From the NCBI GenBank assembly GCA_035573435.1, contig DATMZR010000043.1, positions 1 to 64,000 on the forward strand: a stretch of DNA of 64,000 bases. The letters are read 5' to 3'. Below, in pieces: positions 26,504 through 29,757 of this stretch. Within the stretch, counting starts at the first letter, position 1; every line of letters begins with the position of its first letter. The notes below the pieces were generated by a model. The model made no database searches, was not told where the DNA came from, and saw only the letters and a list, made by a program, of their open reading frames with translations. A program made the translations under genes and the position numbers. The stretch comes from Solirubrobacterales bacterium. Its GTDB lineage: Bacteria; Actinomycetota; Thermoleophilia; Solirubrobacterales; 70-9.

Positions 26504-28954
26504 TCAGGCGGCCTCGGCGGCCTCGTCTGCGGAGCCTTCCTCCTCCTCCGAGTGCGAAAGGCGGCGCGAGATCACCTTGGTGGCGCCGCCGCTTCCCATG
26601 CTGACCCCGTAGAGCACGTCGGCGGCGTCCATGGTCCGCTTCTGATGGGTGACGATCACGAATTGGGCCCGGCCCGAGAAGCGCCGCACGAGCTGCAGGA
26701 AGCGGTCGATGTTCGCGTCGTCGAGCGCCGCCTCTACCTCGTCGAGGATGTAGAAGGGCGACGGACGGGCGAGAAAGACGGCGAACACGAACGCGAGCGC
26801 GACCAGCGCCTTCTCACCGCCGGAGAGCAGCGATAGGCGGCGGGTGGCCTTGCCGGCGGGGGTGACCTCGATCTCTACACCACTTCCGGCGGAATCCTCC
26901 GCTGCCGCGTCCGGTTCGGCCGGGTTTTTGGCGGGATGTCCACCTTCCGCTCCGGGCTCGCCACCCTCAGCGTTGCCACCCTCGGCATCGCCACCCTCAG
27001 CGTTGTCGTCGTCCGCCTCTCCGCCGAGGACCAGGCGGGGGCCGTGCTCGCCGACCAGACGCAGGCGGCCGCGACCCCCCGGGAAGAGATGCGCGATCAG
27101 CTCCTCGAAGTTTCGCTCGGTCGCCTCGAACGTCTCCTCGAAGGCGACCCGGATCTTGCGGTCCGTGTCGCGGATCAGGCCCTGGAGCTCCGCCAGGGCG
27201 GCCTCGAGGTCCTGCCGTTGCTCCTCGAGCTCTTCGACGTGAGCGAGGGCATCGGCGTACTCCTGCTCGGCGAGCGGGTTCACCGGGCCAAGCGCTTCGC
27301 GGCGGCGCGCGAGCCGCTCGAGCTTTTGCTCGAGGAGATCGCGTTCCTCGGCGCTGAGCGCCTCGCCGGCGGGCTCGATCTCGCGACCCAGGCGGGAGGC
27401 GATCCGCTCCAACTCCGTCACCGCTTCGTCGCGCCGATCGCGAAGGTGCGTCGCCCGGACCTCGGCGCCGGTCACCGAGTCGCCCATCGCGTGCAGTCTT
27501 GCCTGAAGCCCCGCCTCCTCCTCCGAGCAGGCCCGCAGCTGCGCGGTCACGTCGTCGGTGTCGTGCTGGTCGAGCATTCGGCTCTCCAGCCGAGCGGCGC
27601 GCTCGCCCACCGCCGCGCGGGCCTCCGCCGTCGCCGCCAGCATCTCGTCCAGCTCCTTCATGATCCCTGCCGCCGCCCGGACGCGGCTCTCCAGCGAGTC
27701 CTGGCGACGCCGGCCCAGCAGCTCCTCCAGCCGCCGGGCGCCGAGCGCGGCGCGCTCCGATGCCTCACGAATCCGCGCGACCTCGGTCGCTCGCGCGTTC
27801 CCGCTGTCTGCCTCTCGAGCGCGGTCCAGGGCCTCGCCGGCCGCCGCGAGCGCGGAGGCGATCCGATGCAGTCCGGAGCCCACGGGATCCTCGCCCTCAT
27901 CGGCAGCGCCCGCGGGCGCCTCCTCGGCCAGCGCGCCCAGAGCCGCCCGCATGCGCTCCAGATCCTCACCGAGCTCGCTGCGCCGCACCGACAGTGCCTC
28001 AGCGCGGACGCTGAGGCGCTCGTGGGCAGCTCGCAGGGCCGTCAACCGGCCCCATACTTCGGTCCGCTCGCGATCGCGCCGGGCAAGGCGCTCCTCGATC
28101 TCGGTTCGGCGCCGGTTCACCTTCGACTGTTCGTCCTCGATGCGCCGCCGGGTCTCACGGGCCTCGGCGGCTTCGCGCTCGGCGTCGCCGAGCTCGCTCG
28201 AGTGCGCTCGGAGCTCCTCCGCGACCAGCCTGCCGCGCAACTCAGCAGACTCGCGTTCCAAGCGGGCGTGGATGTCCGCCGCCTGGGCCTGGCGTTTGAG
28301 AGGCCGCAGCCGGCTGCGAGCCTCGCGCTCGACGTCGAGCGCCCGGTCGAGGTTCTCCTGCGTGCGCTCGAGCTTGAGCTGTGCCCGCCGGCGGCGCTTG
28401 CGGTGCTTCCCGAGCCCGGCCGCCTCCTCGACCAGAAGGCGCCGGTCGCGCGGCTTCGAATGGACTATCTCCTCCACCCGCCCCTGACTGATCACCGAGT
28501 GCATCTCGCGGCCGAGGTTCGCATCGGCAAGCACCTCGATCACATCGACGAGCCGGCAGCGGGCCCCGTTCAGCCGGTACTCGCCCTCCCCGCTTCGCTC
28601 CATCCGCCGCCTGATCGAGATCTCCGAGAAGTCGCTGCCAGCCGCAGACCCGGCCGCCTCCGGAGTCGCAGAGGAGGAGGCGGTCGGCTTTGATGAGTTC
28701 TCCAGCACCACCTCGACCTCGGCGTAGCGCCGCGGCGACTGCTGTTCGCCGCCCGCGAAGATCATGTCCTGCATCGTCTGGCCGCGGACCGCGAGCGGGC
28801 TCTGCTCTCCGAGCGCCCAGAGCACGGCGTCGGTGATGTTCGACTTGCCGCAGCCGTTCGGTCCGACGATCACACTGACACCCGGCGAGAACTCAAGCCT
28901 GGTGCGTTCCGCAAAGGACTTGAAGCCCTTGATCGTGATCGAGCTCAGATGCAT
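26504..28954 (-). CDS. smc: SMC-like chromosome segregation ATPase without a recognisable hinge
   Basis: The head halves are classical SMC. The N-terminal half has Walker A GPNGCGKSN (31-39). The C-terminal half has the signature LSGGE (710-714) and Walker B YILDEVEAALDD (735-746). The protein is only 816 residues, against about 1150-1200 for bacterial SMC. Between the heads there are about 450 coiled-coil residues, with a short Gly/Ala-rich break near 345-360 and no 120-residue hinge domain. A Gly/Glu/Asp/Asn-rich insert (about 640-690) lies in the C-terminal head, partly encoded by 15-bp tandem repeats. Gene order (rnc-smc-ftsY) is that of true smc. Confidence 0.88.
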   Translation of the reverse strand: MHLSSITIKGFKSFAERTRLEFSPGVSVIVGPNGCGKSNITDAVLWALGEQSPLAVRGQTMQDMIFAGGEQQSPRRYAEVEVVLENSSKPTASSSATPEAAGSAAGSDFSEISIRRRMERSGEGEYRLNGARCRLVDVIEVLADANLGREMHSVISQGRVEEIVHSKPRDRRLLVEEAAGLGKHRKRRRRAQLKLERTQENLDRALDVEREARSRLRPLKRQAQAADIHARLERESAELRGRLVAEELRAHSSELGDAEREAAEARETRRRIEDEQSKVNRRRTEIEERLARRDRERTEVWGRLTALRAAHERLSVRAEALSVRRSELGEDLERMRAALGALAEEAPAGAADEGEDPVGSGLHRIASALAAAGEALDRAREADSGNARATEVARIREASERAALGARRLEELLGRRRQDSLESRVRAAAGIMKELDEMLAATAEARAAVGERAARLESRMLDQHDTDDVTAQLRACSEEEAGLQARLHAMGDSVTGAEVRATHLRDRRDEAVTELERIASRLGREIEPAGEALSAEERDLLEQKLERLARRREALGPVNPLAEQEYADALAHVEELEEQRQDLEAALAELQGLIRDTDRKIRVAFEETFEATERNFEELIAHLFPGGRGRLRLVGEHGPRLVLGGEADDDNAEGGDAEGGNAEGGEPGAEGGHPAKNPAEPDAAAEDSAGSGVEIEVTPAGKATRRLSLLSGGEKALVALAFVFAVFLARPSPFYILDEVEAALDDANIDRFLQLVRRFSGRAQFVIVTHQKRTMDAADVLYGVSMGSGGATKVISRRLSHSEEEEGSADEAAEAA
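26960..27004. repeat. three 15-bp tandem repeats inside the SMC-like gene
   Basis: Units GCCACCCTCAGCGTT, GCCACCCTCGGCATC and GCCACCCTCAGCGTT are head to tail. On the coding strand they specify NAEGG, DAEGG and NAEGG. Because 15 is divisible by three, copy-number change keeps the frame. Confidence 0.85.
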
Positions 28955-29031: not shown

Positions 29032-29757
29032 CTACTGCCCCTGGCGCTCCAGCGCTTCGGCGGCGGCGGCCTGCTCGGCGGCCTTCTTGCTGCGGCCCTC
29101 TCCCCTTCCGAGCACCTCATCCCCGCGGAGCGCGACCACCTCGAAGCGACGATCGTGAGGAGGGCCCGCCTCTTGGACGACCTCGTAGGTTACGCGGGTG
29201 CCTTCCCTGGCGAGCCGTTCCTGAAGCGCGGACTTGAAGTCGAGCAGGGTCTCCGACGCCAGCTCGATCTGTGGGGTGAAGGCCCCGACCGTGGCCTCGG
29301 CGGTTACCTCGAAGCCATGGTGCAGGTAGCAGGCGCCGATCACCGCCTCGCAGACCGAGGCCAGCGCCCGCTCCGACGCCACGAGCGCCTCTGAGTCGAT
29401 CCCGCCCTCGCGTTCCGGCGGCGCCGCCTCGCGCAGCCGCGCGGGCAGGCCGAGCGTCCTGGCCACCTCGCTGCAGGCTCGCCCGGAGACCGCCTGCCCG
29501 TGAACCTTGGTCAACCTGCCGATGTCCGCGCGCCCGAAGCGCTGGTACAGGTGCTCGGCCACAGCCAGTCCCAGCACGGCGTCCCCGATGAACGCCAGCC
29601 GGCCGTAGGAGTCCGTCCGGTGGTCAACCCACGAGGAGTGTGTGACCGCCCTGCGCCGCAGGTCGTCGGGGAGCGCGTCGATCAGCTCCGCCAGGCGTTC
29701 TGAGCCGACTTCGCGTCGCGGGCCCGTCCGGCGAAGCCTGCGAATCCCCAGGGGCAC
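29032..29757 (-). CDS. rnc: ribonuclease III homologue with a degenerate active site
   Basis: RNase III layout of 241 residues: endonuclease domain (about 20-150) and a C-terminal double-stranded RNA-binding domain (DFKSALQERLAREG and GEGRSKKAAEQAAA). The signature ERLEFLGDAVL reads GRLAFIGDAVL, so the Glu residues equivalent to E. coli E38 and E41 are G52 and A55. The DxxE site reads SVCE, so D114 is S134. Only D59 (D45) and E137 (E117) remain. It may bind but not cut dsRNA. GTG start at 29757, just after the acpP stop. Gene order acpP-rnc-smc is typical. Confidence 0.85.
   Translation of the reverse strand: MPLGIRRLRRTGPRREVGSERLAELIDALPDDLRRRAVTHSSWVDHRTDSYGRLAFIGDAVLGLAVAEHLYQRFGRADIGRLTKVHGQAVSGRACSEVARTLGLPARLREAAPPEREGGIDSEALVASERALASVCEAVIGACYLHHGFEVTAEATVGAFTPQIELASETLLDFKSALQERLAREGTRVTYEVVQEAGPPHDRRFEVVALRGDEVLGRGEGRSKKAAEQAAAAEALERQGQ

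What the first reader, a model, noticed from the sequence alone, without database searches (positions are those of the whole stretch)
29032..29757. RNase III homologue with most catalytic acids replaced
The normal signature is altered at the two Glu (now G52 and A55) and the later Asp (now S134), leaving D59 and E137. The dsRNA-binding domain is intact and the gene keeps its usual place. It may be a dsRNA-binding protein that no longer cuts, or it may use a different metal arrangement.
Basis: partly seen in the sequence, partly recalled or inferred. Interest (0 to 1): 0.7.

Follow-up and report, generated by a model that had tools for sequence, protein, structure and literature searches.

The report
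RNase III with stripped-down active site
A whole order of soil bacteria (Solirubrobacterales) carries, as its only double-strand-RNA-cutting enzyme, an RNase III that has lost most of the conserved acidic residues, including one of its metal ligands, yet keeps exactly the two acids that cutting needs most, so it is probably an enzyme with an altered metal site rather than a dead one.

Summary
The rnc gene (29032-29757, minus strand) has G52, A55, D59, S134 and E137 where E. coli RNase III has E38, E41, D45, D114 and E117. E65 is also lost (I79). This is not a damaged copy: it is the only RNase III in the genome and is under purifying selection. All 70 order members sampled have Ala at 41, no acid at 65 and no Asp at 114; D45 and E117 are invariant. 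On an independent Smc tree, E41A and the loss of E65 each need one change, on the branch to the order. Within the phylum the motif occurs in 17 of 19 order genomes and 0 of 377 others. D114 was lost earlier, across most of the class.

Of the eight conserved acids, only D45 and E117 survive. In E. coli and S. aureus these are essential for cutting but not for binding. The 23S processing stalk persists with strong covariation. I therefore favour a still-cutting enzyme with a reduced (metal-B-type) site over a dead dsRNA binder. No activity was measured. This protein also naturally carries the three positions (38, 65, 165) mutated in the engineered "bacterial Dicer". It is a new variant of a known kind.

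The parts
29032..29757 (-). rnc, RNase III homologue, GTG start, 241 aa
   Evidence: Pfam RIIID and dsrm over cut-off; NCBIfam TIGR02191 156 bits, below its 166.25 cut-off
29293..29664 (-). RNase III nuclease domain
   Evidence: PF14622 E 9e-22; AlphaFold model mean pLDDT 93, best PDB match E. coli RNase III 7r97
29047..29235 (-). dsRNA-binding domain, intact
   Evidence: PF00035 E 5e-16
29602..29604 (-). G52 = E. coli E38 (valley rim) lost
29593..29595 (-). A55 = E. coli E41 (metal A ligand) lost; Ala in 70/70 of the order
   Evidence: metal role from PMC9291653
29581..29583 (-). D59 = E. coli D45 (metal B ligand) kept, invariant
29521..29523 (-).
29368..29370 (-). R130 = E. coli S110; Arg in 92% of the order, rarely in the class; one helical turn before position 114 and on the same face as 114/117
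   Evidence: helix assignment; face is helix geometry (inference)
29356..29358 (-). S134 = E. coli D114 (no direct metal contact) lost; Ser or Glu in the order
29347..29349 (-). E137 = E. coli E117 (ligand of metals A and B) kept, invariant
29209..29211 (-). A183 = E. coli Q165 (+3 G recognition) lost, common across the class
   Evidence: role from PMC9291653
29769..30035 (-). acpP, upstream neighbour
   Evidence: acpP found near rnc in 69 of 70 order loci
26504..28954 (-). smc, downstream neighbour; used for the independent tree

Best explanation
This is the ordinary, single-copy RNase III of the Solirubrobacterales, with an order-wide reduced active site. The acid at 114 was lost first, in most of the class. 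E41 (a metal-A ligand) and E65 (valley rim) were then lost at the base of the order, with Arg gained at 110. E38 was later lost several times, including in the window's genus. D45 and E117, which hold metal B, are kept without exception. The protein probably still dimerises, binds dsRNA and cuts the 23S (and other) stalks. It would do so through the metal-B site, with metal A weakly bound or its role taken partly by Mn2+ or by Arg130. The loss of two rim acids per subunit (E38, E65) should tighten RNA binding. Shown: the residues, clade, single copy, purifying selection and retained stalk. Inferred: cutting, metal use and the role of Arg130.
For: 70/70 order sequences keep D45 and E117 and lack E41, E65 and D114. 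E41A and the E65 loss each need one change on an Smc tree, and the order is one starred clade. dN is about 0.1-0.35 of dS between genus members. RIIID divergence is only modestly raised for matched Smc distance. There is no second RNase III domain in the own genome or in 57 relatives with a hit. The 23S stalk pairs in 91.8% of cells with 10 of 27 pairs changed on both sides in nine order genomes, and 0 of 500 shuffles match. Literature: D45/E117 mutants bind but fail to cut; E41A and D114A are weak with excess Mg; D114 does not touch Mg directly (PMC8708148, PMC3386247, PMC9291653).
Against: E41 is a direct metal-A ligand, and E41A alone is weak in E. coli; combined with D114S, activity could be near zero. 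No atomic coordinates were available to test the Arg130 idea. The stalk could be kept for ribosome assembly or for another nuclease. The nuclease domain evolves somewhat faster than in sister families. rRNA loci were readable for nine order genomes, none of them from the window's own family.
Confidence: 0.6

Rival explanations
1. Non-cleaving dsRNA-binding protein: the order has lost RNase III catalysis and kept the dimer and dsRBD as an RNA chaperone or regulator, as with the E. coli rnc70 (E117K) protein or plant RNC1.
For: Two of four catalytic-cluster acids and two rim acids are gone; the nuclease domain evolves slightly faster than in sister families while the dsRBD is close to them; inactive RNase III relatives exist (RNC1, PMC8708148).
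Against: D45 and E117, not needed for binding, are invariant in 70/70 while the other conserved acids drift or are lost; the 23S stalk is kept with covariation.
Confidence: 0.25
2. Active enzyme with a replacement acid: residues from the order-specific segment before helix 130-148 (for example Glu129, E. coli 109, acidic in 83% of the order and 4% of the class), or the Glu at 114 in 24 of 70, restore the metal A site.
For: Acid gain at position 109 in the order; Glu at 114 in 24 of 70.
Against: Position 109 lies off the 114/117 helix face by simple geometry; 46 of 70, including the window, have Ser at 114; no acid is newly invariant anywhere in the nuclease domain.
Confidence: 0.1
3. Recent pseudogene or assembly artefact in this genome only.
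For: None found.
Against: Same state in 70/70 order members from many assemblies, dN/dS well below 1, intact frame, conserved neighbours.
Confidence: 0.01

Closest known systems
Bacterial RNase III (E. coli Rnc, Aquifex Rnc, M. tuberculosis Rnc)
   Same: Domain order, fold (7r97 best match), operon place, D45, E117, dsRBD and DxKSxLQE linker motif
   Different: Lacks E41, E65, D114, the GxGE loop, Q165 and in this genus E38; has extra residues before the D114 helix and Arg at 110
Engineered E. coli RNase III E38A/E65A/Q165A ('bacterial Dicer', PMC9291653)
   Same: The three engineered positions are naturally changed here (G, I, A) and in 28 of 70 order members, 0 of 146 others
   Different: The engineered enzyme keeps E41 and D114; here both are lost, so product size and activity are unknown
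E. coli rnc70 (E117K) and E117A/Q binding-only mutants (PMC8708148)
   Same: Altered catalytic cluster with an intact dsRBD
   Different: Those lose E117; the natural variant keeps E117 and D45 and loses E41 and D114
Inactive RNase III relatives: plant RNC1, mitoribosomal protein mL44
   Same: RNase III fold with missing catalytic acids (mitoribosome chains of the mL44 type are among the fold matches)
   Different: Organellar and derived; the mL44 catalytic state is from memory and was not tested here. This one is the cell's only RNase III and keeps D45 and E117

Membership tests
Bacterial RNase III (class I) | N-terminal RIIID plus C-terminal dsRBD | tested here: met
   Pfam; model
Bacterial RNase III (class I) | Four-acid catalytic cluster E41, D45, D114, E117 | tested here: not met
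   Only D45 and E117 present
Bacterial RNase III (class I) | Signature box NERLEFLGDS | tested here: not met
   Reads YGRLAFIGDA
Bacterial RNase III (class I) | Orthology: conserved gene place and single copy | tested here: met
   acpP-rnc-smc in the order and class; one copy
Bacterial RNase III (class I) | NCBIfam TIGR02191 equivalog score | tested here: not met
   156 bits against a cut-off of 166.25
Bacterial RNase III (class I) | Metal-dependent cleavage of dsRNA | not testable with these tools
   Needs purified protein
Catalytically dead RNase III-type dsRNA binder | Loss of the residues essential for cutting (D45, E117) | tested here: not met
   Both invariant in 70/70
Catalytically dead RNase III-type dsRNA binder | No cleavage with intact binding | not testable with these tools
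   Needs binding and cleavage assays
Natural 'bacterial Dicer' | Loss of E38, E65 and Q165 | tested here: met
   G, I, A in the window; 28/70 of the order
Natural 'bacterial Dicer' | 22-23 nt products from long dsRNA | not testable with these tools
   Needs in vitro assay

The most novel reading that the evidence does not exclude
Solirubrobacterales RNase III cuts dsRNA without the E41 metal-A ligand and without D114, through a single retained carboxylate metal site (possibly helped by Arg130), and because it also lacks the rim acids and the +3 G reader it acts as a natural bacterial Dicer releasing about 22-nt duplexes. That would be a natural exception to the two-metal model of RNase III.
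Probability: 0.25. Interest if true: 0.8.

Novelty: new variant of a known kind. Interest (0 to 1): 0.58.

Why it matters
E41 is treated as a catalytic metal ligand of RNase III, the enzyme from which Dicer and Drosha mechanisms were worked out. Every sampled member of one bacterial order lives without it, and without E65 and D114, in its only RNase III. If these enzymes cut, they show how few carboxylates the RNase III chemistry needs and offer natural enzymes for siRNA production. If they do not cut, a whole order processes rRNA without RNase III cleavage. Either answer is one purification away. I found no paper joining RNase III with this class, in an open-access library that omits most subscription journals.

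Tried and rejected
Searching for a second RNase III or Mini-III (PF00636, PF14622, dsrm) found none beyond rnc. Free duplex search of long 16S/23S flanks was uninformative for many genomes because GC-rich flanks pair by chance; anchoring on the conserved CTTGAAAACT motif fixed this for 23S. The 16S stalk was left undecided. Raw RIIID/Smc divergence ratios exaggerated relaxation and were replaced by distance-matched comparison. The predicted model gave no readable coordinates, so replacement acids could not be tested in three dimensions. Literature searches for natural inactive or variant bacterial RNase III in this class found nothing. Pseudogene and assembly artefact were rejected.

Full report
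Observation. The open reading frame at 29032-29757 on the minus strand (GTG start) encodes a 241-residue RNase III with a nuclease domain and a dsRNA-binding domain. Alignment to PDB RNase IIIs and to relatives puts G52, A55, D59, S134 and E137 at E. coli positions E38, E41, D45, D114 and E117. In addition E65 is Ile, Q165 is Ala, and the GxGE loop (97-100) is gone. The protein falls just under the NCBIfam RNase III cut-off (156 against 166.25 bits). The AlphaFold model is confident (mean pLDDT 93) and matches E. coli RNase III 7r97 best.

How widespread it is. The window lies in a 2.58 Mb, 97% complete genome. Its nearest relatives in GenBank are labelled Solirubrobacterales or Conexibacter (matching contig lengths), that is, Actinomycetota, Thermoleophilia. 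Across 70 distinct sequences of the order (four families): position 41 is Ala in 70; position 65 is Ala, Ile, Pro or Ser in 70; position 114 is Ser in 46 and Glu in 24; position 38 is non-acidic in 28; D45 and E117 are kept in 70. Across 80 sequences from the rest of the class: E41 80, E65 80, E38 79 (one Asp), D114 only 12. Across 66 other bacteria: E41 66, E65 66, D114 57. On a tree of the neighbouring Smc protein the order is one clade with SH-aLRT 97; E41A needs one change, the loss of an acid at 65 one, at 38 six, at 114 nine. A DNA pattern for RLA(F/Y)xGDxVL is in 17 of 19 order genomes and 0 of 377 other genomes of the phylum; that pattern finds only this wording of the motif.

Not decay. 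The genome has one RNase III domain and one dsRBD, and 57 of 60 relatives searched likewise have a single RNase III domain, with no Mini-III. Between species of the genus dN/dS is about 0.1-0.35. The acpP-rnc-smc neighbourhood is conserved. With pairs matched for Smc distance, the nuclease domain is modestly more divergent than in the rest of the class (for example 0.44 against 0.34 at Smc distance 0.20-0.25), while the dsRBD is close to it at most distances.

Which acids survive, and what they do. Eight acids are conserved in RNase III orthologues (E38, E41, D45, E65, E100, D114, E117, D126; PMC3839596). In the order only D45 and E117 are kept in all sequences. In the E. coli RNA complex metal A is held by E41 and E117, metal B by D45 and E117; D114 touches no metal; E38 and E65 sit on the valley rim, and removing them tightens RNA binding and gives 22-nt products (PMC9291653). 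D45 and E117 mutants fail to cut but still bind (PMC3386247; PMC8708148 Table 1). E41A and D114A keep weak activity with excess magnesium. So the order has kept a complete metal-B site, and it has kept the residues that matter for cutting and not for binding. That is hard to explain for a protein that only binds. The counter-argument is that both weak mutations are combined here, which I have not found measured anywhere.

Substrate. In nine order genomes with readable 23S genes (families f2 and f3) the flanks form the usual processing stalk around CTTGAAAACT / AGTTTTGAAGG, 34-49 base pairs long, like the sister families (41-50). Over a 27-pair core, 91.8% of cells pair, 10 pairs change on both sides, and none of 500 shuffles reaches these values; slid controls fall to 28-46%. 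The stalk is under selection to pair. This is expected if it is still cut, but it could also serve assembly.

A possible new player. Position 110, one helical turn before 114 and on the same helix face as 114 and 117, is Arg in 92% of the order, Asn/Ser/Thr in 92% of the class and Ser/Ala/Thr elsewhere. An arginine that takes over part of the charge role of metal A is an inference without coordinates.

Natural 'bacterial Dicer' positions. Positions 38, 65 and 165 are non-acidic, non-acidic and non-Gln together in 28 of 70 order members, including the window, and in none of 146 others. These are the positions changed in the engineered E38A/E65A/Q165A enzyme.

Verdict. The most likely account is a functioning RNase III with a reduced, metal-B-type site (0.6); a non-cutting dsRNA binder remains possible (0.25). 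It is a new variant of a known kind, directly testable with one purified protein.

Noticed in passing
26504-28954 (-): The neighbouring Smc is only 816 aa and has no SMC hinge domain by Pfam; no SMC_hinge match exists anywhere in this genome. In the same family 4 of 37 genomes have a hinge match, while the other families of the order mostly do: apparently a hinge-less SMC lineage.
   Followed up: partly
other Thermoleophilia families (L140-L229, e.g. L143, L158): Loss of D114 (Ala or Asn) and of the GxGE loop is class-wide in RNase IIIs that keep E38, E41 and E65.
   Followed up: partly
L065, L068, L089, L093, L100, L107, L111: Asn replaces D114 in RNase IIIs of scattered Bacillota, Planctomycetota and others, so D114N is a common natural change.
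   Followed up: no
L259 (G129), L258 (G166), L256 (G075): 23S rRNA genes span about 5315, 3735 and 3511 nt instead of about 2990, suggesting inserted introns or intervening sequences.
   Followed up: no
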